Shown here piece after piece: positions 23,346-42,086 of a DNA stretch of 43,055 nucleotides. Under the pieces are notes generated by a model. The model had not been told where the DNA came from and did not search any database. It was given only the letters and a program-made list of their open reading frames with translations. Made by a program: the position numbers and the translations under genes. Origin of the DNA: Clostridia bacterium (GTDB lineage Bacteria > Bacillota > Clostridia > Oscillospirales > CAG-272); NCBI GenBank assembly GCA_017452545.1, contig JAFTME010000145.1, forward strand, positions 1 to 43,055, written 5' to 3'. The first letter of the stretch is position 1, and every line of letters begins with the position of its first letter.

Positions 23346-24731
23346 ATGCTTGAAGTATCCTCGCAAACCAATCTTCTGGAGCAGAAATCCTACCGCTATC
23401 AGCTTCAGGACGTTGCCGAGCCCAATCTTTACCGTGACGTTTATCCGTACACGGAGGTACCGAAGGTGCCGTTCAACCACCGCCGCGTACCCATCAATAT
23501 GCCCAAGGAGATCTGGATCACCGATACGACCATGCGTGACGGTCAGCAGTCGGTTGAGCCGTATACCGTCAAGCAGATCGTTGATCTTTACCGTTTGATG
23601 TCGCGCCTTGGCGGCCCCAAGGGCATCATTCGTCAAACGGAGTTTTTTATTTACAGCAAGAAGGACAGAGAAGCGCTTGAGGCATGCTTGTCGCTTGGCT
23701 TGAAGTTCCCCGAGATCACGACCTGGATCCGCGCCAACCGCGAGGATTTCAAGCTGGTGCGTGATCTGAACATCAAGGAGACCGGTATTCTCGTCAGCTC
23801 CTCCGATTATCATATTTTCAAGAAAATGAAGATGACCCGTGCCGAGGCGATGGATTATTATCTGCATACCGTCTCCGATGCGTTTGAGGCAGGGGTCGTT
23901 CCGCGCTGCCATCTGGAGGATATTACCCGTGCGGATTTCTACGGCTTTGTCGTACCCTTTGTCAACAAGCTGATGGAAATGAGCTATGATGCGGGCATTC
24001 CCGTCAAGATCCGTGCCTGCGACACGATGGGCTACGGTGTACCGTTCTCCGAGGTCGCCATCCCTCGCAGCGTTCCCGGTATCATCTACGGTCTGCAGCA
24101 TTACTCCGACGTTCCCAGCGAGCAGCTGGAATGGCACGGTCACAACGACTTCTACAAGGCAGTCAGCAACGCATCCACGGCATGGCTGTACGGTGCGAGT
24201 GCGGTCAACTGCTCGTTGCTCGGTATCGGTGAGAGAACGGGTAACATTCCGCTGGAGGCAATGGTATTTGAGTACGCCTCGCTGCGCGGCACGATGGATG
24301 GCATGGATCCTACGGCGATTACCGATATTGCCAACTATTTCCGTGAGGAGATCGGCTATACCATTCCCGATATGACGCCCTTTGTCGGCAGAAACTTCAA
24401 CGTTACCCGCGCGGGCATTCATGCGGACGGCCTGATGAAGGACGAGGAGATCTACAACATTTTTGATACTAAGACCATTCTTAACCGCAGCGCAGGTGTT
24501 ATGGTCACCAAGACCTCCGGACTTGCGGGTATCGCGTACTGGATCAACGAAAACTACGGTCTTAAGGGCGATGCGCGCATTCAGAAACACGATCCGCTGG
24601 TACAGGCGCTCAAGGAGTGGGTCGATGATGAATACGAAAACGGCAGACAAAACGTGCTTTCCAACGGTGAGCTGGAGGAAAAAATCGACGAGCTGGGGAA
24701 GGGACGCTTCAAAAAGCCTACCAGCTTTTGA
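23346..24731 (+). CDS. Re-type citrate synthase (isopropylmalate/homocitrate synthase family)
   Basis: A 461-residue DRE-TIM metallolyase. Condenses oxaloacetate and acetyl-CoA, or a close analogue reaction. The signature is TDTTMRDGQQS (Arg64, Asp65, Gln67) and the metal-binding HGHND pair is His264/His266; GERTGNIPLEAMV and the NVTRAGIHADGLMKDEEIYN segment also fit. It has no C-terminal leucine-binding LeuA domain, so it is not an ordinary isopropylmalate synthase. The next genes in the operon are aconitase and isocitrate dehydrogenase, so citrate is the expected product, as with the known Re-citrate synthase of Clostridium kluyveri, which replaces the ordinary enzyme in several anaerobes. 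Homocitrate synthase is the alternative. ATG 23346 follows GAAAGGA by 10 bases. Confidence 0.85.
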   Translation: MLEVSSQTNLLEQKSYRYQLQDVAEPNLYRDVYPYTEVPKVPFNHRRVPINMPKEIWITDTTMRDGQQSVEPYTVKQIVDLYRLMSRLGGPKGIIRQTEFFIYSKKDREALEACLSLGLKFPEITTWIRANREDFKLVRDLNIKETGILVSSSDYHIFKKMKMTRAEAMDYYLHTVSDAFEAGVVPRCHLEDITRADFYGFVVPFVNKLMEMSYDAGIPVKIRACDTMGYGVPFSEVAIPRSVPGIIYGLQHYSDVPSEQLEWHGHNDFYKAVSNASTAWLYGASAVNCSLLGIGERTGNIPLEAMVFEYASLRGTMDGMDPTAITDIANYFREEIGYTIPDMTPFVGRNFNVTRAGIHADGLMKDEEIYNIFDTKTILNRSAGVMVTKTSGLAGIAYWINENYGLKGDARIQKHDPLVQALKEWVDDEYENGRQNVLSNGELEEKIDELGKGRFKKPTSF

Positions 24732-24752
24732 TCGCGTATAGGTGAGTCGGAT

Positions 24753-25415
24753 ATGAACGACGGAAAATATTCATCCCGCACGGCCTACGTATTCGAAACG
24801 CTTGAAAATGAAATTCTTGGCGGTGTCTACCGCGACGGTGATCTTTTGACCGAGCTGAAGCTGTGTGAAAAGTTTAACGTCAGCCGTACTCCCGTTCGCG
24901 AGGCGCTCAACCGTCTCAAGCAGGAAAACCTCGTGGTGGAAACGGTACACGGCATGGCTGTCGTCGGCGTGACCGCAAAGGATATTCTGGATATCTATGA
25001 GATACGTAAGCGGATCGAAGGATACGCGACGGGCTGCTGCGCGGCGATCATCACACCCGCACAGCTGGCACAGCTGCGTGAGGTCGTGGATCTGCAGGAG
25101 TTTTACACCGAGCGCGGTGTTGCGGACAGCATCCGCGATACGGACAGCCGCTTCCACGAAATGATCTACGCCTTTTGCGGCAGCAGAACGCTGCGCGAGA
25201 TGCTCAGCGAGCTGCACAGAAAGGTGCAGAAGTACAGGAAGATTTCGGTGGAGAACCCCCACCGTGCCAAGGTTGCCGTAAGGGAGCACAGAGATATTCT
25301 GGAGGCACTCGTCAAGCACGATGCTGCAGAAGCGGAATATCTTGCCGTGCTGCATATTGAAAATGCCAAGAAAAATATTGTGCTTGCTACCGGCAGCACG
25401 GGTGAGCACGACTGA
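24753..25415 (+). CDS. GntR-family regulator with FCD domain (likely citrate-operon repressor)
   Basis: A 220-residue regulator. The winged helix-turn-helix spans about residues 8-72 (LLTELKLCEKFNVSRTPVREALNRLKQENLV is the recognition region). The all-helical FCD domain has the metal/ligand residues Asp131, His135, His179 and His201. Such regulators sense small organic acids, often citrate, 2-oxo acids or their analogues. It sits inside the operon, 21 bases after the synthase stop, with only a weak ribosome site (TAGGTGAG), and the palindrome at 23304 is the probable target, so it most likely represses its own operon. The ligand is inferred from context, not from sequence. Confidence 0.9.
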   Translation: MNDGKYSSRTAYVFETLENEILGGVYRDGDLLTELKLCEKFNVSRTPVREALNRLKQENLVVETVHGMAVVGVTAKDILDIYEIRKRIEGYATGCCAAIITPAQLAQLREVVDLQEFYTERGVADSIRDTDSRFHEMIYAFCGSRTLREMLSELHRKVQKYRKISVENPHRAKVAVREHRDILEALVKHDAAEAEYLAVLHIENAKKNIVLATGSTGEHD

Positions 25416-25451
25416 TCAAACCGTGAAAAAGTTAGAAAAGAGGATATATTT

Positions 25452-27386
25452 ATGGGACTGACAATCGCACAAAAAATCATTCAGGCGCATCTGGTCAAGG
25501 GCGAAATGATCGCCGGACAGGAGATCGCGCTGCGTATGGACCAAACGCTGACGCAGGATGCTACGGGTACCATGGCGTATCTGGAGTTTGAATCGATTGG
25601 TATTCCTCGCGTTCGCACCGAGCTGAGCGTGGCGTATATCGATCACAACACACTGCAATCCGGCTTTGAAAATGCAGATGACCATCGCTATATTCAGTCG
25701 GTGGCTAAAAAATACGGCATTCGCTTCTCCCGTCCCGGCAACGGTATTTGTCACCAGGTACATCTGGAGCGCTTCGGCAAGCCCGGCAAGACGCTGATCG
25801 GCTCGGACAGCCACACCCCCACGGGTGGCGGTATCGGTATGCTTGCCTTCGGCGCGGGCGGTATGGATGTAGCGGTTGCCATGGGTGGCGGTGAGTATTA
25901 TATCACCATGCCCAAAATGATCAAGGTCAATCTGACGGGTAAGCTTTCCCCCTGGGTCAGCGCTAAGGACGTCAGCCTTGAGATCTTGCGCATCCTGTCC
26001 GTCAAGGGCGGTGTCGGTTATATCGTTGAATGGGGCGGCGAGGGCGTCAAGACCTTGTCCGTACCCGAGCGTGCGACCATTACCAACATGGGCACCGAGC
26101 TTGGTGCGACCACCTCGATTTTCCCCTCCGATGAAACGACGCGTGCCTTCCTTGCCGCACAGGGCAGAGAAGAGGACTACATTCCGCTGGCAAGCGATCC
26201 CGACGCCGTCTACGATCGCGTGATCGATATCGATCTGTCCTCGCTCAAGCCGCTGCTGGCTTGTCCTCACAGCCCCGACAATATCAAGCCCGCAGACGAG
26301 TTGTCCAACGTTAAGGTCGATCAGGTTTGCATCGGCTCCTGCACCAACTCCTCGCTGCGTGATATGCTGCGTGTGGCAGCCATTCTCAAGGGCAAAAAGA
26401 TCGACGATTCCGTCAGCCTGTCCATCTCTCCCGGATCCAAGCAGGTGCTGACCATGCTTGCGGATTGCGGCGCGCTTGCCGATATGATCGCAGCAGGTGC
26501 CAGAATTCTTGAATGTGCCTGCGGTCCTTGCATCGGTATGGGCTTCTCGCCCAATTCCGCCGGTGTTTCTTTGCGTACCTTTAACCGCAATTTTGAAGGT
26601 CGCAGCGGTACCAAGGACGGTCAGGTTTATCTGGTCTCCCCCGAGCTTGCAGCCGCTTCCGCATTGACGGGATATATTACCGATCCCCGCACGCTGGGTG
26701 AGTATCCCGAGATCGTGATGCCCGATGCCTTTGTCGTGAACGATTCCGCCGTGCTGATGCCGGCATCCGCTGATGAGGCAGACGCCGTTGAGGTGCTGCG
26801 CGGTCCCAACATCAAGCCGTTCCCCGAGGCACGTCCCCTCAGTGATACTATTACGGCGCCCTTGACACTCAAGGTCGGTGATAATATCACGACCGACCAC
26901 ATCATGCCCGCAGGTGCCAAGATCCTGCCGTATCGCTCCAATATTCCGTATCTGTCCAAGTTTTGCTTCGCCGTTTGCGACGAGACCTTCGCAGAGCGCG
27001 CACTTGCCGCAGGGCAGTCGATCATCGTGGGCGGTGTGAACTATGGACAGGGCTCCTCCCGTGAGCATGCGGCGCTGGTTCCGCTGTATCTCGGCGTTCG
27101 CGTCGTCGTTGCCAAGAGCTTTGCACGTATTCACGTGGCAAATCTGATCAACGCCGGCATTTTGCCCTTGACCTTTGTCAATCCCGACGATTACGACAAG
27201 GTTTCGCAGGGAGATGAGCTGGAGCTTTGCGGTCTGTTTGATGCGATCGTCAGCGGCAAGGCTGTTATGCTGAACAAGACGACGGGCGAGAGCATTGAGC
27301 TTTGCGGCTCGTTCTCCGAGCGTCAGCAGGCGATGCTGCGCGCAGGCGGCCTGCTGAAATATACCCGCGACGCAGGGAACAACTGA
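25452..27386 (+). CDS. Aconitate hydratase, short type
   Basis: Interconverts citrate and isocitrate with a [4Fe-4S] cluster. The protein has 644 residues, like the shorter mitochondrial-like/archaeal aconitases and unlike the ~890-residue AcnA. The cluster ligands are Cys297 in IGSCTNSS and Cys357/Cys360 in CACGPC. The substrate segments SDSHTPTGGGIGMLAFGAGG and the mobile-domain signature GGVNYGQGSSREHAALVPLYLGVRVVVAKSFARIH are intact. It is the third gene of the citrate operon; an AAAGAGG site lies about 8 bases before ATG 25452. 3-isopropylmalate dehydratase is the alternative family, but the single fused chain and the neighbours favour aconitase. Confidence 0.93.
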   Translation: MGLTIAQKIIQAHLVKGEMIAGQEIALRMDQTLTQDATGTMAYLEFESIGIPRVRTELSVAYIDHNTLQSGFENADDHRYIQSVAKKYGIRFSRPGNGICHQVHLERFGKPGKTLIGSDSHTPTGGGIGMLAFGAGGMDVAVAMGGGEYYITMPKMIKVNLTGKLSPWVSAKDVSLEILRILSVKGGVGYIVEWGGEGVKTLSVPERATITNMGTELGATTSIFPSDETTRAFLAAQGREEDYIPLASDPDAVYDRVIDIDLSSLKPLLACPHSPDNIKPADELSNVKVDQVCIGSCTNSSLRDMLRVAAILKGKKIDDSVSLSISPGSKQVLTMLADCGALADMIAAGARILECACGPCIGMGFSPNSAGVSLRTFNRNFEGRSGTKDGQVYLVSPELAAASALTGYITDPRTLGEYPEIVMPDAFVVNDSAVLMPASADEADAVEVLRGPNIKPFPEARPLSDTITAPLTLKVGDNITTDHIMPAGAKILPYRSNIPYLSKFCFAVCDETFAERALAAGQSIIVGGVNYGQGSSREHAALVPLYLGVRVVVAKSFARIHVANLINAGILPLTFVNPDDYDKVSQGDELELCGLFDAIVSGKAVMLNKTTGESIELCGSFSERQQAMLRAGGLLKYTRDAGNN

Positions 27387-27415
27387 GTATCGTTTTTAAG
27401 ACTGGAGAATACATC

Positions 27416-28615
27416 ATGGCAAAAATTCAAATGAAAACGCCGCTGGTCGAGATGGACGGCGACGAAATGACGAGAATTCTTTGGCAGAAGATCAAGGACG
27501 AGCTGATCCTTCCTTTTGTCGATCTGAAGACCGAATACTACGACCTTGGCTTGCCCGAGCGTGAGCGCACCCGTGACGAGGTCACCATGCAGGCAGCGCT
27601 TGCCAATAAAAAGTATGGTGTTGCTGTCAAGTGTGCGACCATTACGCCCAACAAGCAGCGCGTTGAGGAATACAATCTTTCCGAGATGTGGAAGAGCCCG
27701 AACGGCACCATCCGCGCCGTTCTTGACGGTACGGTATTCCGTGCGCCCATTCTGATCGACAGCATCAAGCCTGCCGTTCGCAACTGGAAAAAGCCCATCA
27801 CCATCGCTCGTCACGCATACGGCGACGTATATAAGGCAAGCGAGTTCCGCATTGAGGGCGAGGGTAAGGCAGAGCTGGTCTTTACCGCTGCCGACGGTAC
27901 GGAGCGCAGACAGACCATTTACGATTTCGAGTGCCCCGGCGTGCTGCAGGGACAGTACAACAAGGATACCTCTATCCGTGCCTTTGCACACTCCTGCTTC
28001 CAATACGCGATCGATACCAAGCAGGATCTGTGGTTTTCGACCAAGGACACCATCTCCAAGCAGTACGATCAGACCTTCAAGCTGCTGTTTGAGGAGATCT
28101 ATCAGACGGAATACAAGGCAAAGTTTGAGGAGCTTGGCATTGAGTATTTCTACACGCTGATCGATGACGCGGTCGCGCGCGTGATCCGCAGCGAGGGCGG
28201 CTTTATCTGGGCGTGCAAAAACTACGACGGCGACGTCATGAGCGACATGGTTTCGACGGCGGTCGGCTCGCTGGCGATGATGACCTCGGTGCTCGTTTCT
28301 CCCGACGGTAATTACGAGTACGAGGCAGCACACGACACGGTTACGCGCCACTATTATTGCTATCTCAAGGGTGAGGAGACTTCGACCAACCCCATGGCGA
28401 CCATCTTCGCTTGGACGGGCGCGCTGCGCAAGAGAGGTGAGCTGGACGAGTTGCCCGAGCTTGTAGCCTTTGCCGACAGACTGGAGGCAGCTTGCATCAA
28501 GACGCTGGACGACGGTATTATGACCAAGGATCTGGCAGGTCTTGTTGAGGACAAGTCCGCCGTTACTGCGGTCAACAGCGATCAGTTCCTCAAGGCGATC
28601 CGCGAGAGAATGTAA
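27416..28615 (+). CDS. icd: Isocitrate dehydrogenase, NADP type (eukaryote-like homodimer)
   Basis: Oxidative decarboxylation of isocitrate to 2-oxoglutarate. The 399-residue chain belongs to the class shared with human IDH1/IDH2: isocitrate-binding Arg residues in NGTIRA, TVFRAP and IARHAYGD, metal Asp residues in LIDDAVA and CKNYDGDVMSDM, and the C-terminal KDLAGLVEDK. In the NADP loop EAAHGTVTRH of relatives, this protein has EAAHDTVTRH: Asp replaces the Gly that is invariant in most members, while the following Arg-His pair that grips the 2'-phosphate is kept. GGAGAA lies 5 bases before ATG 27416. It is the last gene of the operon and completes the synthase-aconitase-dehydrogenase route to glutamate. 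Confidence 0.95.
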   Translation: MAKIQMKTPLVEMDGDEMTRILWQKIKDELILPFVDLKTEYYDLGLPERERTRDEVTMQAALANKKYGVAVKCATITPNKQRVEEYNLSEMWKSPNGTIRAVLDGTVFRAPILIDSIKPAVRNWKKPITIARHAYGDVYKASEFRIEGEGKAELVFTAADGTERRQTIYDFECPGVLQGQYNKDTSIRAFAHSCFQYAIDTKQDLWFSTKDTISKQYDQTFKLLFEEIYQTEYKAKFEELGIEYFYTLIDDAVARVIRSEGGFIWACKNYDGDVMSDMVSTAVGSLAMMTSVLVSPDGNYEYEAAHDTVTRHYYCYLKGEETSTNPMATIFAWTGALRKRGELDELPELVAFADRLEAACIKTLDDGIMTKDLAGLVEDKSAVTAVNSDQFLKAIRERM

Positions 28616-28844: not shown

Positions 28845-28873
28845 TTGACGAAAAAAAGATGGCGTGATATAAT
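28845..28873 (+). promoter_or_regulatory. Sigma-A promoter of the giant lipoprotein gene
   Basis: TTGACG, 17 bases, TATAAT; the start codon follows 33 bases later with GGAGGT in between. Confidence 0.85.
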
Positions 28874-28906
28874 TGGATCGTAATATCTACGGAGGTATTT
28901 CAGCCA

Positions 28907-31900
28907 ATGACAATGAAAAAAAGATTTTTACTGCTTGTCATGGCTGTGCTGCTTGTGATGGCTATGATGCTTGTTTCGTGCAAGAGTGATCCCATCGACG
29001 AGCCGCAGCCCGATGACAGTCAAGGTAAGCCGACGGTCAGTCTGATCGAGAACGGTGCTTCCGATTACGAGATCATCGTTAACAAGGGCGCATCAAGAGA
29101 TCTCTCGATCGCAGCGCTGCGGGTGCGCAGCGCGCTGCACGAAGCCACCGGTGTCAGACTTGATCTGACAAAGATTGAACCGGATGCAGAGGAGAGTGCC
29201 CCTACGGACACGCTTGAGATTCTGATCGGCACGACCAACCGCACGCAAAGTGCTGAGGCGGTCGCGGCTTTGGGTGAGAATGAATACGTGATCGCGCTGA
29301 TGGGCAAGCGCCTTGTCATTACGGCTGCCACCGACGAGGGCGCTGTTGCAGCTTGTGAGGCGTTTGTCTCGCAGGTGCTTGGCTTCTCAAAGGAGAGTGG
29401 CACTTATGCGGTCAATGCACTGGTGCTTGAGGAGGGATATCAGCTCAAGGGCACCTACACCCCTGCGCCGGTAGACGATGAAGACGGTGACGACCGCCAA
29501 GAGATCGTTTACGAGGATCAGAACGCCCCGACCAAGTCGCCCGAAACCTACGTTCGCCCGACCTACAAACTGGTGGACGGACAGTACGTACAGAGCTACG
29601 AGGAGGTCGAGTACACCGGCGTGATGACCACCTTCCAGGCGAGCGTTCTTTATAACGAGGGCGTTGCGATCAACACTGACGCTGTGATGGTGTACTCCTA
29701 TTCGGATACCAATTTTGCGTCGTGGTACAGCTCGGGGGATTACGTCATCGATATGATGATTGCTGTCAACCGCGCGGGAAAAGATTATCTTTCCAAGGAT
29801 AAGAGCAACTATGAGGACATCCAGATGGAGGCGAGCGGAAACTATCTGCCGCATCCGACCCACTCGGAGTCCAATCCCTGCTATTACATGGTTCCTTCGA
29901 AGGACTGGATCGAATTTGTTTGGAGCGATGTGCTTCGTCCCATGATCGAAACCTACCATCCGCAAACGATTGCACTGGAGGAGCCCGAAATGTGGGGACG
30001 CTCCGGCTACTCCGAGACCTTCAAGAAGGAGTGGCAGGAATACTACGGTGAGCCCTGGGTGGATCCCGCTACATCCGCGGAAGCAACGCTTAAGGCAAAT
30101 GTGCTCAAATGCTATCTTTTTGAGCGCATCCTGACGGTGCTCTCCGAGCGCGTCAAGGCGCTCTCTCCTACCACGCAGGTCTACGTTGCCTCGCACAGCA
30201 CCATGGACTATGCCCGCCGCCCGATCGTATCCGGCTTGAACCACTATCTGGCAACCGGCGCCATCGACGGAGTCATTGGACAGACTTGGTCGGGTACGCA
30301 CGTGGCTCCCTTTGCCTACAACGGCTCCAAGGTGATCGATAACTTCACCAATGCCTTTGTTGAATACGCTTCCTACGTAGATTCCGTGGAGGGCTCGGCG
30401 TTCTATGCGCTTGCCGACCCGATGGACGATGACGGAAACAGACCCGAAGGATCGTACGAATTTTTGTACCGACAGTCGATTGCGGCACAGTTGATGCAGC
30501 CGGAGATCCACCGCTTCCAGGTGCTTCCGTGGGTCAACCGTGCATACGCTGCCGTTGGAAACGACTACCGCTCGGTACAGTCCACCATTTTTGAAATGCT
30601 GAACGATATCGGTGGGGAGGCAGTGGAGATCACGGCAGGAACGCCGGGGATTACCTATCTGCTCTCCGATACGCTCTCCTGGATGTCGCCCAACAACGGC
30701 TGGGCAATGACACCCAACGACGGTATGTATGCCGTAACGGCACCCCTGATCCGCGACGGCGTTCCCGTCAAAATGAAGGCGATGGATCAGATCACCTCTG
30801 CAAAGGATCTCGAGGGCGTGACGCTGCTGCTGGTCAGCTTTGACAGCTCCGTGCCGTTGAGCGAGGAGATCAATGCTGCGATTGCCGACTGGGTAAAGCA
30901 GGGTGGAACCATGCTTTACGTTTCCGGTCATAACCAATATTTCGAGTGCGAGGATTACTTCTTCTGGAAGGATGACGGTTCTCCACTTGCCAACCTTTTT
31001 GCACAAATGGGTGTGAATGTCAAGGTGAACAGTGGAGTAAACGTATCTTCTACCGCGCGCCTTGCTGCCAAGGAGTCTGCGCTTTCGGCTGCCTTTGACG
31101 GTCACAGCTATCCGCTGATGTATCGCTCCTTCCTGGTTTCCTTTGAGGGGGCAGACAAGCCGATCTTGACGTTGGGTGACAGCGTGATCGGCTTTGAGCA
31201 GTCGGTCGGTAAGGGTGAAATCGTTGTCATCGGCTTGCCCTCGGCGTATCTGAGCAATTATCAGGGTGGTGCGACCATGATGCGTGCACTGACCGAATAT
31301 GCGCTGCAGAGCACGGACTACGAGTACGTTTCCTCCGATCTGATGGTTGCAAAGCGCGGCAAGTACACCATCGCGCACGCATTTGCTGAGCCGCAGATCC
31401 TCAAGGGAACCTATATCAACCTGTTCGACCCCGAGCTTGCTGTTGTTATTGATCCCAAGATCCTTTTGAATGACAGTATGGTTCTTGTTGATGCGGATGC
31501 CTACGACTTGAGTGTACCGCGTCTGGGATATTCGACCGGTACGGTTACGGAGCTCAAGGAGACAAAGGATGCGATGTCCTTCTCGCTGACCAGCGCCGGT
31601 AATACCACCGTCAGCTGCCGCATTCTGCTGCCGGAGAATATTTATTTCCATACGCTGACGCTGGAGCGCGACGGACGCGAGGTGCTGCCGCACGCTGTTA
31701 TCTACGATGAAAAGACGCATTCGCTTCGTGTGACCTTTGACGGGGGCAAAACGCCGATTGCAGTCGCACTGACCTTTACAAGCGACAAAACCGCAGGTGA
31801 GTATAGCGCGTATACCGTAAGGGATACCGATATTCCTACCAACGCGGCAGGCGAGGATGCAGCGTATCTGCTTGTGAATACGGCACGCTCCAAGGATAAT

Positions 31901-34303
31901 ATGCGTTTCTGTGACAATAGCGGTCAGCTGGTCTATTGCTTTGATCTGACCGAGTTCAGTGAGCGCGTGCAGTTCCGCTTCCATGTTCTTCAGAACTATA
32001 TCGTTGAGGTTTACGATCCGGAGGAAGAAAAATGGATCCTGGTTGCCGACTATTCCGAGGGCGGAAAGGTGCCGCATCTGACGACCGGCGGAAACAATAC
32101 CGTTATTGCGATCGATCCGCAGGATTATGAGGGAGCGCTTCTCAACGATGAGCTGCGCGTTCGTCTGCGCAATACCGATACCTCCAAGGGCTGGGGTGCT
32201 TCGATCACACAAATCGTTATTCGTGAGCACGTACTGTCTACCTCCTCCGACGCCAAGGAAGACACCGCGTGGATGGTGGGCTTGAACAACAATACCGTGA
32301 TCGATGATAAGGCTGCTTCAGCACCGAGTCTCACGGACGAGAGTAAGTTTATCGTTTCTACGGAAAACGGTGTCAATACCTACGAGCGAAAGGTTTACAC
32401 CAACAGTAAAAACGAGGATGCAGACTTCCTGTACTTTGAAAGTGCATCCGAGCGTACCAAGGATCGTTATTGCGATAATAACGGTATGCTGATCTACTAT
32501 TTCGACGTATCCGAAATGATCACTGCAGAGCTGACCTTCCACTTGTATCAGAACTATCTGTTTGAGATCAGCCCCGACGGTGAGGTGTGGTGGCTGCTTG
32601 CCGATGCATCGCAGGGCGGCAAGATCCCGACGAACACGACAGGCGGCATTCCTAAGCTGGTAACAGTCAATCCCTTTGCATACGATTGCGACGAGACGGG
32701 CACCTGCTTCTTCCGCCTGCGCGACGCACATCCCGCTGACGGATGGGGTGGAACCATTGATTATTTCAAGATGGTATACACCAAGAACGTCGATCCCGAG
32801 GCCGAGATCGTCCGTCCCGAGGTTTCCGATGCTCCCAGATACACGGCAGACGGAACACTTTGGGAGAAGGAAGAGGAGCAGGATCCGGATGCGGACTATC
32901 TGATTTCCGTCGACCGGGGAATCGGAACGTACGAGCGTACCATTCTGACTAACCAAAAGCAGTTTGACAAGGAATTTCTGCTTGAAAACAAGGGCAATGC
33001 GCGCGAAAACGATAGATATTGCGACGGCGACGCCTATATGGTTTATTGCTTTGATGTTTCGGATATGCTCACGAGTGAGTTTACGCTGCACGTGTTCCAG
33101 AACTATTTGATCTCGGTCAGCAGCGACGGAAAGCAGTGGACGGTCGTAGCGGACTACTCCAAGGGCGGTACGGTGCCGACCATCAAGGACGGCAACAACA
33201 AGACCACCGTGACGATCGATCCGTCCAAGTATGGCTGCGATAAGACAGGGAAGTTCTATTTCCGTATTGAGGATGCAGGTAAGAGCGACGGCTGGGGCGG
33301 TACCATCACCAAGATCGCTATGACCTTTACCAAGAAAACAAGTGCAACCCCGTCTTACCACGACGAGGAATACCTGATCAATATTGAGGGCAATACCGCG
33401 ACCTACTACCGCCGTGTGGCAACCACCGGTGCCGGAACGGATATTGATTTTATCCACAGCAATACGGCTTCCTCGACCGATAATCTGCGCTTCTGTGACC
33501 AGGCAAGACAGCTGGTTTATCTGTTCTCTCTCCGTGGCATGAAGAGTGCGGAATATAAGTTCCAGGTTGCACAGAACTACATTCTTGAGGTCAGCCCCGA
33601 TGGTGAAAGCTGGACGATCGTTGCCGATTATTCCCAAGGCGGCACGGTTCCGCATCTGATGACGGGTAGCTCCAATAAAACGGTCATTACGATCGATCCC
33701 TTTGCGCATGGCTGCAATGCTACGGAAAAAATGTACGTCCGCCTGCGCAACACCGATACGAGTAAGGGCTTTGGTGGTTGCATCTACTATTTTGAGATGA
33801 CGTACACCCGTGAGGTGAGCGGAAATGCCACGATCGCAGATCCGGATGAAAAGTATTACGTTGAGACCAAAAACGGCGTCAAGCATTACGAGCGCAAGAT
33901 CCTGACCAACGCAAGCAATACCGATGCAACCTTCTTGCTGGAGGATCAGGCACAGAGCACGGATAAGATCCGTTTTTGCGACGGAAATAAGTATCTGATC
34001 TATCGCTTTGATTTGAGCGATTGGCAGGATGCAACGGCAACGTGGCGGATCGGTCAGAACTATATGATCGAGATCAGTGCAGACGGAAAAGCATGGACGA
34101 CGCTTGCGGATTATTCCGAGGGCGGTACGGTACCGTGGATCGGCAATGCAAGCAATATGACCGATATTACCGTCGAGCTGTTCTCCCGTGGCTGTGAGGA
34201 AAGCGGTGTTGCGTATATCCGCATCAGCACGCCTTGGAAGGACAAGGGACACGGTGCCCGCCTTGAATATTTCACGCTCAATTACACCAAAGCGGCGAAT
34301 TGA
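28907..34303 (+). CDS. Giant secreted lipoprotein: glycosidase-like front, five C-terminal repeats
   Basis: A 1798-residue surface lipoprotein. The signal peptide ends in a lipobox, MLVSC, with Cys25 as the lipidated residue, followed by an acidic linker. Residues about 45-180 form an alpha/beta domain of the kind placed before alpha-glucuronidase or GH20-like catalytic domains (LEILIGTTNRT, LVITAATDEGAVAACEAFVSQVLG). Residues about 230-600 look like a TIM barrel (VMTTFQASVLYN..., IALEEPEMWGRSG with Glu358, Glu359 and Glu361 as candidate catalytic acids, VIGQTWSGTHV). Residues about 640-860 resemble a glutaminase-like domain of GH42-type enzymes (LEGVTLLLVSFDSS, VKQGGTMLYVSGHNQ, KGEIVVIGLPSAYL). 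From about 990 to the end are five repeats. I do not recognise a single named family. Glycan breakdown at the cell surface is inference. It is a single-gene unit. Confidence 0.9.
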   Translation: MTMKKRFLLLVMAVLLVMAMMLVSCKSDPIDEPQPDDSQGKPTVSLIENGASDYEIIVNKGASRDLSIAALRVRSALHEATGVRLDLTKIEPDAEESAPTDTLEILIGTTNRTQSAEAVAALGENEYVIALMGKRLVITAATDEGAVAACEAFVSQVLGFSKESGTYAVNALVLEEGYQLKGTYTPAPVDDEDGDDRQEIVYEDQNAPTKSPETYVRPTYKLVDGQYVQSYEEVEYTGVMTTFQASVLYNEGVAINTDAVMVYSYSDTNFASWYSSGDYVIDMMIAVNRAGKDYLSKDKSNYEDIQMEASGNYLPHPTHSESNPCYYMVPSKDWIEFVWSDVLRPMIETYHPQTIALEEPEMWGRSGYSETFKKEWQEYYGEPWVDPATSAEATLKANVLKCYLFERILTVLSERVKALSPTTQVYVASHSTMDYARRPIVSGLNHYLATGAIDGVIGQTWSGTHVAPFAYNGSKVIDNFTNAFVEYASYVDSVEGSAFYALADPMDDDGNRPEGSYEFLYRQSIAAQLMQPEIHRFQVLPWVNRAYAAVGNDYRSVQSTIFEMLNDIGGEAVEITAGTPGITYLLSDTLSWMSPNNGWAMTPNDGMYAVTAPLIRDGVPVKMKAMDQITSAKDLEGVTLLLVSFDSSVPLSEEINAAIADWVKQGGTMLYVSGHNQYFECEDYFFWKDDGSPLANLFAQMGVNVKVNSGVNVSSTARLAAKESALSAAFDGHSYPLMYRSFLVSFEGADKPILTLGDSVIGFEQSVGKGEIVVIGLPSAYLSNYQGGATMMRALTEYALQSTDYEYVSSDLMVAKRGKYTIAHAFAEPQILKGTYINLFDPELAVVIDPKILLNDSMVLVDADAYDLSVPRLGYSTGTVTELKETKDAMSFSLTSAGNTTVSCRILLPENIYFHTLTLERDGREVLPHAVIYDEKTHSLRVTFDGGKTPIAVALTFTSDKTAGEYSAYTVRDTDIPTNAAGEDAAYLLVNTARSKDNMRFCDNSGQLVYCFDLTEFSERVQFRFHVLQNYIVEVYDPEEEKWILVADYSEGGKVPHLTTGGNNTVIAIDPQDYEGALLNDELRVRLRNTDTSKGWGASITQIVIREHVLSTSSDAKEDTAWMVGLNNNTVIDDKAASAPSLTDESKFIVSTENGVNTYERKVYTNSKNEDADFLYFESASERTKDRYCDNNGMLIYYFDVSEMITAELTFHLYQNYLFEISPDGEVWWLLADASQGGKIPTNTTGGIPKLVTVNPFAYDCDETGTCFFRLRDAHPADGWGGTIDYFKMVYTKNVDPEAEIVRPEVSDAPRYTADGTLWEKEEEQDPDADYLISVDRGIGTYERTILTNQKQFDKEFLLENKGNARENDRYCDGDAYMVYCFDVSDMLTSEFTLHVFQNYLISVSSDGKQWTVVADYSKGGTVPTIKDGNNKTTVTIDPSKYGCDKTGKFYFRIEDAGKSDGWGGTITKIAMTFTKKTSATPSYHDEEYLINIEGNTATYYRRVATTGAGTDIDFIHSNTASSTDNLRFCDQARQLVYLFSLRGMKSAEYKFQVAQNYILEVSPDGESWTIVADYSQGGTVPHLMTGSSNKTVITIDPFAHGCNATEKMYVRLRNTDTSKGFGGCIYYFEMTYTREVSGNATIADPDEKYYVETKNGVKHYERKILTNASNTDATFLLEDQAQSTDKIRFCDGNKYLIYRFDLSDWQDATATWRIGQNYMIEISADGKAWTTLADYSEGGTVPWIGNASNMTDITVELFSRGCEESGVAYIRISTPWKDKGHGARLEYFTLNYTKAAN
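31855..34294 (+). repeat. Five tandem protein modules in the giant lipoprotein
   Basis: Five copies of a ~120-residue beta-rich module spaced 158-187 residues apart; the RFCD/RYCD motif begins at residues 1000, 1187, 1370, 1528 and 1689. Each copy has, in order: R(F/Y)CD, a (V/I)Y-FD(L/V)S stretch, QNY followed by (I/L)-V/S-DG, W..VADYS-GG-VP, a loop with NKT or similar, DP-(Y/H)GC, and a closing G(W/F)G. Copies 1 and 4 share RLRNTDTSKG. The repeats are not similar at DNA level in any obvious way, so the duplications are old. Confidence 0.85.
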
Positions 34304-40622: not shown

Positions 40623-42086
40623 TTAATCCCAACTGTCGACCATGTCATTGAAATCGCGGCTCTTTTCCTCGATGCTGGCCTCAAAGGCGGCACAGTGAGA
40701 GGCGAGCGTGTTGGAGTCCACCTCCGTCCACAGCTTCCATGCAAAGGTGGTGGGGTCATAGATCATGCCGATATCATATTTTCTCGTATCAAATACGATC
40801 TGAAGCATTTCCTTGGATTCCTGGTCGCGCGTGGATTTTCCCATCAGAACCGTATCGTGGAACATGGGATAAACGGTGTAGTAGGATTCGGCACTCAACG
40901 CTTCGATAATGACGGAAACCATCATCGAATCTCCGCAGGAGGTGGGAACACCGATGACGCTGTCGTAATGCTGCCAGACAAGGCTGGAGTAGTTTTCCTG
41001 TTCCTCATTGTATTTCGGAATGGGAAGAATACCGTAGTTGGTCTCCATATCACGCAGGGAAGCGGATGTCTTGACCATGCCGTACATGAACAGACCCTCA
41101 TCTGCCTTGAATTTGTTGATTGGCGTTTCGCTCCAGCGGTAATCAACGTGATACATATAGTCGTACAGATCGGACATGACCTGAATGTTTTCTTCCTCGG
41201 CAAATTCATGGACGAAATAGCGGTCGTCCTCAATGTGGCCGATACTGTGTCCGGAGCCGCCGTACAGATATGCTACGACGTCAATGGCACCGAGTGCGCC
41301 GTACAGGTCGCCCGCGCTCCACTCGTCGTCACCATCCAGCTCACGCGTGACATCCTCTGCATATTCTGCCAACACCTCCCAGGTCCATTCCTGGTCACGA
41401 ACAATCTCGTAGAGGTCGGTAATGCCGTTATCGGTGGCAACCTTGGTATTGAAATAAACGCAAGCAGTCGCGCCCTTATCCAACAGCAGCATTTCAGAGG
41501 AAGCAAACTGTGTTTTGTCGCCAAAAGTGAAGTTTTCAACGGAAGAGGCATTCCACCAAGGCATAGAAAGATCGATGTAGGGAAGATCGTCATCGCCAAG
41601 ATCATAGAAAAGGTTTTCCAGCCACATACCGGAGAGCGTGTTGCTTCGCTGCACCATCATCTGGAAGTCCGTATCGCCGGTGTTAACGGCGTTGCGGATC
41701 TTACCGGGCAGCTCCGAGTCGGTGTGAAAATACGAATTGGTAATGGTAACGCCGTATTTTTCCTCGACGGCAGCGTTTCTTTGATATACCTCGTTTTCAA
41801 GGTGATCGCCGGTCATGGATTCAACGCTGATCTCTTCCCAAGGCGTCCAACCGCCGCCAACGTCTCCGTTGACCGCCCAGTGAATGACGCTGAAGGGCGC
41901 GTTATTGTAGTATTCATTGGGAAGATCGGGCTCAATGCGAGGCTCTTCCTCATCTGCGGGATCCTTCCCGGTACCGTTTTCGGATTCATCGGCGGGAGGA
42001 AGGTCATCGTCTGCGGGGGTATCGGCGCAGGCGACCGCTAAGAGCACCAGAAGCATTGCGAGAAGCAACAGTGTGAATCGTTTCAT
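40623..42086 (-). CDS. Extracellular solute-binding lipoprotein (ABC importer type)
   Basis: A 487-residue lipoprotein. The signal peptide ends in LAVAC (Cys20), then an acidic Asp/Glu/Pro-rich tether (21-55). The mature part has the outline of family 1 sugar-binding proteins: NEVYQRNAAVEEKYGVTI, FDL-like strands, YIDLSMPWWNASSVENFTFGDK, CVYFNTKVATDNGITDLYEIVRDQEWTWEVLAEYAEDV and NYGILPIPKYNEEQENY. A short periplasmic-protein-like C-terminus ends in MVDSWD. No permease or ATPase genes are in the window, so the transporter is elsewhere. ATG 42086 is preceded by GAAAGGA at 10 bases; a TTG 18 bases earlier overlaps the ribosome site. The substrate is probably an oligosaccharide, by family only. 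Confidence 0.9.
   Translation of the reverse strand: MKRFTLLLLAMLLVLLAVACADTPADDDLPPADESENGTGKDPADEEEPRIEPDLPNEYYNNAPFSVIHWAVNGDVGGGWTPWEEISVESMTGDHLENEVYQRNAAVEEKYGVTITNSYFHTDSELPGKIRNAVNTGDTDFQMMVQRSNTLSGMWLENLFYDLGDDDLPYIDLSMPWWNASSVENFTFGDKTQFASSEMLLLDKGATACVYFNTKVATDNGITDLYEIVRDQEWTWEVLAEYAEDVTRELDGDDEWSAGDLYGALGAIDVVAYLYGGSGHSIGHIEDDRYFVHEFAEEENIQVMSDLYDYMYHVDYRWSETPINKFKADEGLFMYGMVKTSASLRDMETNYGILPIPKYNEEQENYSSLVWQHYDSVIGVPTSCGDSMMVSVIIEALSAESYYTVYPMFHDTVLMGKSTRDQESKEMLQIVFDTRKYDIGMIYDPTTFAWKLWTEVDSNTLASHCAAFEASIEEKSRDFNDMVDSWD

What the first reader, a model, noticed from the sequence alone, without database searches (positions are those of the whole stretch)
28907..34303. 1798-residue lipoprotein with glycosidase-like front half
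Lipobox, glucuronidase-like N-terminal domain, TIM-barrel-like domain with an EEPE cluster, a glutaminase-like domain and a long repeat tail in one chain. No named family fits the whole. Likely a surface enzyme acting on a complex glycan, or a binding scaffold.
Basis: partly seen in the sequence, partly recalled or inferred. Interest (0 to 1): 0.62.

Follow-up and report, generated by a model that had tools for sequence, protein, structure and literature searches.

The report
Unnamed sugar-cutting surface lipoprotein family
A gut bacterium carries a very large membrane-anchored protein whose core is a beta-galactosidase-shaped sugar-cutting enzyme that Pfam and NCBIfam do not name; its smaller relatives sit beside mannose-removing enzymes in soil bacteria, so it is a testable candidate for a new enzyme family acting on mannose-containing glycans.

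Summary
The 1798-residue reading frame is real, with its own promoter-like site, a ribosome-binding site and a lipobox. Residues 43-187 fold like the N-terminal domain of GH115/GH67 alpha-glucuronidases. Residues 222-960 form the GH42/GH164 three-domain glycosidase architecture: barrel, glutamine-amidotransferase-like domain B, beta-sandwich. The tail is five F5/8-type-C (CBM32-like) modules. The barrel has no Pfam or NCBIfam match. It belongs to an unnamed family with two clades: long, mostly lipoprotein forms in herbivore-gut Clostridia and Victivallales, and compact ~740-residue enzymes in Paenibacillus and relatives, Verrucomicrobia and Bacteroidota. A conserved pocket ringed by the ends of the barrel strands (E359 after strand 4, D504 after strand 7) is intact in 85 of 86 members; the one exception lost nearly all of it together. 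Strand 7 ends in Asp, not the Glu of GH42/GH164, so I do not file it in clan GH-A. Twenty of 22 compact genes from named Bacillota strains lie beside a GH38 alpha-mannosidase gene, usually with ABC importer genes. Most likely a lipid-anchored exo-glycosidase acting on mannose-containing glycans. Activity, linkage and catalytic mode are inferred; CAZy could not be searched.

The parts
28845..28873 (+). sigma-70-like promoter TTGACG-N17-TATAAT
   Evidence: read from sequence; consensus match only
28891..28895 (+). GGAGG ribosome-binding site
   Evidence: read from sequence
28907..34303 (+). 1798-aa lipoprotein ORF
28907..28981 (+). signal peptide II with lipobox LVSC (Cys25 = lipidation site)
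   Evidence: sequence; 39 of 50 long-form ORF entries (some the same gene fetched twice) carry a lipobox by the same simple rule
29033..29467 (+). N-terminal accessory domain (res 43-187), GH115/GH67/GH20b-type fold
   Evidence: AF2 pLDDT 96.0; Z 13.8 to GH115 4zmh_B, 131 aligned, 2.6 A; paralogs hit NAGLU_N, GH20b, GH67N
29468..29569 (+). acidic, Pro-rich linker (res 188-221)
   Evidence: sequence
29570..30616 (+). catalytic (beta/alpha)8 barrel, domain A (res 222-570)
   Evidence: AF2; fold search
29978..29989 (+). E358-E359-P360-E361 cluster at end of beta4; E359 invariant in 86 of 86 = proposed general acid/base
30416..30430 (+). D504-x3-D508 at end of beta7; D504 in 85 of 86, D508 in 86 of 86; D504 = proposed second catalytic carboxylate
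30617..31321 (+). GATase-like domain B (GH42 trimerisation-type; DUF4350 match)
   Evidence: Pfam DUF4350 E 1.2e-6, just under cut-off; profile match to GH42 domain B E 5.5e-8 and to PDB 6jow E 4.3e-5
31331..31786 (+). beta-sandwich domain C (res 809-960)
   Evidence: AF2
31796..32236 (+). tail module R1 (res 964-1110), F5/8 type C-like
32351..32785 (+). tail module R2 (res 1149-1293)
32891..33334 (+). tail module R3 (res 1329-1476)
33365..33814 (+). tail module R4 (res 1487-1636)
   Evidence: best F5_F8_type_C stretch 1546-1622, whole-protein E 2e-10
33842..34291 (+). tail module R5 (res 1646-1795)
   Evidence: best F5_F8_type_C_2 stretch 1696-1740

Best explanation
It is a lipid-anchored, multimodular glycoside hydrolase of an unnamed family with the GH42/GH164 A-B-C architecture. 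Cys25 tethers it to the membrane. The GH115-type N-terminal module and a flexible acidic linker hold the barrel away from the membrane, and five CBM32-like modules bind a glycan. The barrel cleaves terminal glycosidic bonds, with E359 (end of beta4) as general acid/base and D504 (end of beta7) as nucleophile or base; domain B probably mediates trimerisation as in GH42/GH164. The likely substrate is a mannose-containing glycan (N-glycan, alpha-mannan or a mannose-bearing heteropolysaccharide), because the compact relatives are co-encoded with GH38 alpha-mannosidases and, less often, GtaA-type proteins, GH76 or GH92. Shown by computation here: the fold, domain layout, conservation of the pocket and gene linkage. 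Inferred: activity, exo mode, which carboxylate does what, trimerisation, substrate.
For: AF2 core model pLDDT 95.8, pTM 0.94. Top solved matches over about 550 residues: GH42 1kwg (Z 23.6, 4.0 A, 547 aligned) and GH164 (Z about 20); Foldseek top hits are exo-beta-glucosaminidase 6jow, then GH42, GH164 and beta-1,2-glucosyltransferase entries. Domain B is also linked to GH42 by profile (E 5.5e-8). Residues at or just after the ends of strands b1, b2, b4, b5, b6, b7 and b8 (Q244, Y263, E359, H430, S431, Q459, W461, D504, W542, R545) are near-invariant over 86 sequences at 22-59% identity to the window core, and all but E359 are lost together in one decayed homolog, L028. GH38 lies within the fetched flanks (up to about 6 kb each side), same strand, in 20 of 22 loci from named Bacillota strains, 14 of them within 300 nt; GtaA in 11 of 49 compact loci, GH76 in 3, GH92 in 1. 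Background is 27 GH38 genes in about 37 Mb of carrier genomes, so about 1% expected by chance. ABC permeases, binding proteins and GntR/LacI regulators recur. The own genome has nine GH38 genes in 2.2 Mb.
Against: No member known to me has measured activity. The barrel shows no sequence match to a GH family. The beta7 carboxylate is Asp, not Glu. The long-form genes themselves show no conserved carbohydrate gene neighbourhood. One compact locus has a GH2 beta-galactosidase instead of GH38 (L093).
Confidence: 0.6

Rival explanations
1. The same enzyme, but a conventional beta-galactosidase- or glucosidase-like activity with no special link to mannose; the GH38 genes are general neighbours in sugar-uptake operons.
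For: Best fold matches are beta-galactosidases and exo-beta-glucosaminidases; L093 has a GH2 beta-galactosidase next door.
Against: 20 of 22 GH38 linkage, plus GH76 and GH92 in unrelated phyla; beta7 Asp instead of Glu.
Confidence: 0.2
2. A transglycosidase or glycoside phosphorylase rather than a hydrolase, using the same pocket.
For: Structural neighbours include the beta-1,2-glucosyltransferase of Ignavibacterium album (7vkw); Asp at beta7 departs from the retaining-hydrolase pattern.
Against: Importer plus exo-glycosidase operons are typical of hydrolases (general knowledge); no phosphate-site evidence was looked for.
Confidence: 0.1
3. A catalytically dead, surface glycan-binding scaffold.
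For: Five CBM32-like modules, large size, accessory N-domain.
Against: Pocket residues intact in the window protein and in 85 of 86 relatives; compact relatives have no binding tail.
Confidence: 0.08

Closest known systems
GH42 beta-galactosidases (e.g. Thermus A4, 1kwg)
   Same: Same A-B-C domain order and fold over 547 residues, Z 23.6; domain B related by profile; carboxylates at beta4 and beta7.
   Different: No PF02449 match; no 'NE' acid/base motif (EEPE instead); Asp not Glu at beta7; 11% identity.
GH164 beta-mannosidase Bs164 (6t5o; PMC7105311)
   Same: Same three-domain architecture, Z about 20; a mannose-specific relative by function.
   Different: Bs164 uses Glu160/Glu297; only domain B shows weak sequence similarity.
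GH115/GH67 alpha-glucuronidase N-terminal domain
   Same: Fold of residues 43-187 (Z 13.8 and 12.0).
   Different: Here it precedes a different catalytic barrel and is reused in about 20 lipoproteins of one genome.
F5/8 type C (CBM32-like) modules
   Same: Pfam match above cut-off; five mutually similar copies.
   Different: Specificity unknown; nearest relatives carry about two copies, judged by tail length.
GxGYxYP putative glycoside hydrolases (PMC4071793)
   Same: Also linked to GH38/GH92 loci, and in this genome several related proteins carry the same N-terminal module.
   Different: Unrelated catalytic domains.

Membership tests
GH42 | match to PF02449 catalytic domain | tested here: not met
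   no hit at E<=10 for the window protein; sampled relatives also none at E<=1
GH42 | barrel + trimerisation domain + beta-sandwich | tested here: met
GH42 | Glu acid/base after beta4 and Glu nucleophile after beta7 | tested here: not met
   E359 after beta4 in 86/86, but D504 after beta7 in 85/86; residue-level superposition not available
GH164 | sequence homology to Bs164 over the barrel | tested here: not met
   profile hits 6t5o only in domain B, E 0.043
GH164 | three-domain fold | tested here: met
   Z about 20, 539-546 aligned
GH164 | catalytic Glu160/Glu297 equivalents | tested here: inconclusive
   beta4 Glu present; beta7 residue is Asp; positions inferred from DSSP only
clan GH-A | retaining mechanism | not testable with these tools
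   needs NMR of products
clan GH-A | Glu nucleophile at the end of beta7 | tested here: not met
   Asp504 in 85 of 86; strand assignment from the predicted model
any CAZy family (dbCAN/CAZy) | membership in a CAZy GH family, including those without a Pfam model | not tested
   no CAZy library on hand; only Pfam, NCBIfam and PDB searched
GH115/GH67 N-terminal domain | alpha/beta fold of the N-terminal domain | tested here: met
   Z 13.8 to 4zmh, 131 of 145 residues
F5/8 type C / CBM32 | Pfam PF00754 above gathering cut-off | tested here: met
   41.3 bits vs 28.2
bacterial lipoprotein | signal peptide with lipobox ending in Cys | tested here: met
   LVSC25; lipidation itself not tested

The most novel reading that the evidence does not exclude
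The core defines a glycoside hydrolase family not yet recognised anywhere: a GH42-shaped enzyme with a Glu(beta4)/Asp(beta7) catalytic pair, working on a mannose-containing glycan that GH38 enzymes cannot finish alone.
Probability: 0.4. Interest if true: 0.65.

Novelty: new variant of a known kind. Interest (0 to 1): 0.5.

Why it matters
An enzyme family annotated 'hypothetical protein' (e.g. in Paenibacillus cellulositrophicus) recurs in cultured soil bacteria beside alpha-mannosidases and in herbivore-gut bacteria as giant surface lipoproteins. Assigning it would add a step to mannose-glycan breakdown, and an Asp at strand 7 would test how fixed the clan GH-A catalytic pair is. The compact 740-residue forms make the test simple.

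Tried and rejected
phmmer of the whole protein against PDB gave only sub-threshold hits. E533 (MQPEI) looked like a nucleophile in five paralogs but varies freely in 86 sequences and precedes beta8, so it was dropped. The GHL6 family (PF14871) was searched as a source of comparison sequences but the comparison was not carried out. GH42 versus core profile comparison aligned domain B only, so it gave no residue mapping of the active site. PgaB (GH153), Cwp19 and GH168 barrels match at Z about 20 but only over about 300 residues and are taken as a shared barrel. A batch of neighbour proteins was aligned for a Pfam tally but clustering was used instead. Literature searches found no paper naming the family. 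Papers on Paenibacillus xanthan degradation also mention GH38 (not read), so xanthan-like substrates remain open.

Full report
Observation. The ORF at 28907-34303 (+) encodes 1798 aa, with GGAGG at 28891-28895, a TTGACG-N17-TATAAT element upstream, and a lipobox ending at Cys25. Pfam finds F5/8 type C modules (E 2e-10) and DUF4350 just under its cut-off at 605-785, nothing else of note; NCBIfam finds nothing meaningful.

Family. The own genome holds four further copies of the core and about 20 other proteins sharing the N-terminal module. All five same-genus genomes searched have the core, but only a few others in the order, and only 2 of 299 sampled genomes of the phylum passed a strict threshold. 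One degenerate pattern scan over 84,980 species genomes confirmed 186 relatives. Lengths and a tree of 86 cores show two groups: 34 long forms (support 1.0), most with a lipobox and with tails of about 1-5 module lengths, from herbivore-gut Clostridia and Victivallales; and compact forms of about 710-820 aa in Paenibacillus, Cohnella, Thermobacillus, Alicyclobacillus, gut Clostridia, Verrucomicrobia and Mucilaginibacter. The window protein has the longest tail of those fetched.

Fold. AlphaFold2 with the 86-row alignment gives pLDDT 95.8. Eight barrel strands are followed by a GATase-like domain and a beta-sandwich. Structural neighbours over about 550 residues are GH42 (Z 23.6), GH164 (Z about 20) and the Ignavibacterium beta-1,2-glucosyltransferase (Z about 20); Foldseek puts Pyrococcus exo-beta-glucosaminidase first. 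Domain B is also recognisable by profile. The N-terminal domain (pLDDT 96.0) matches GH115 and GH67 alpha-glucuronidase N-terminal domains best, and related paralogs hit GH67N, NAGLU_N and GH20b in Pfam.

Active site. E359 follows beta4 and D504 follows beta7 in the DSSP of the model. Across 86 sequences E359, P360 and D508 are invariant; H430, S431, Q459, W461, T464, D504, W542 and R545 are kept in 85. The single exception, L028, lost those eight together and keeps E359 and D508, the pattern expected of one functional site decaying. GH42 and GH164 use Glu at beta7 (Bs164: Glu160 and Glu297); here it is Asp, so clan GH-A membership is not claimed.

Function. In the compact clade the gene lies on the same strand as a GH38 alpha-mannosidase in 20 of 22 loci from named Bacillota strains, with binding proteins, permeases, GntR/LacI regulators and, in 11 of 49 compact loci, GtaA-family proteins. 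A GtaA-family (DUF4964/DUF5127/DUF4965) protein was labelled by a glycosidase probe in PMC9668830, whose authors suggest such proteins may be glycoside hydrolases. Verrucomicrobial and Mucilaginibacter loci carry GH76, and the latter also SusD and GH92. GH38 density in carriers is about 0.7 per Mb, so proximity by chance is about 1% per locus. The species are not independent of each other, so the count overstates the evidence, but the link recurs with different gene orders. The window genome carries nine GH38 genes. Mannose-containing glycans are therefore the best guess; xanthan or other GH38-linked polysaccharides are not excluded.

Limits. No coordinates, no CAZy library, no biochemistry. 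The long-form genes are solitary: the window copy lies between an aconitase/isocitrate dehydrogenase-like run and an aminotransferase.

Noticed in passing
L115-L131 (own genome), L119 two in tandem: A GH115/GH67-type N-terminal domain is reused in about 20 different lipoproteins of this 2.2 Mb genome, several of them related to GxGYxYP putative hydrolases; it looks like a general surface spacer or docking module of this lineage.
   Followed up: partly
G000 contigs C85, C84, C32, C12, C86, C39, C30, C97, C128: Nine GH38 alpha-mannosidase genes in one 2.2 Mb genome.
   Followed up: no
L133:1430-4117 (+): 896-aa protein joining an FGE-sulfatase-type domain to a GH14/GH42-like barrel, directly upstream of the paralog on contig C26.
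   Followed up: no
L028:871-3000 (-): Homolog that lost nearly all pocket residues at once: probable pseudo-enzyme.
   Followed up: partly
window 40626-42086 (-): 487-aa lipoprotein-like protein with no Pfam match.
   Followed up: no
window 23346-28612 (+): Run of HMGL-like (possibly Re-citrate synthase), a regulator-like gene, aconitase and isocitrate dehydrogenase-like gene just upstream; names partly from memory.
   Followed up: no
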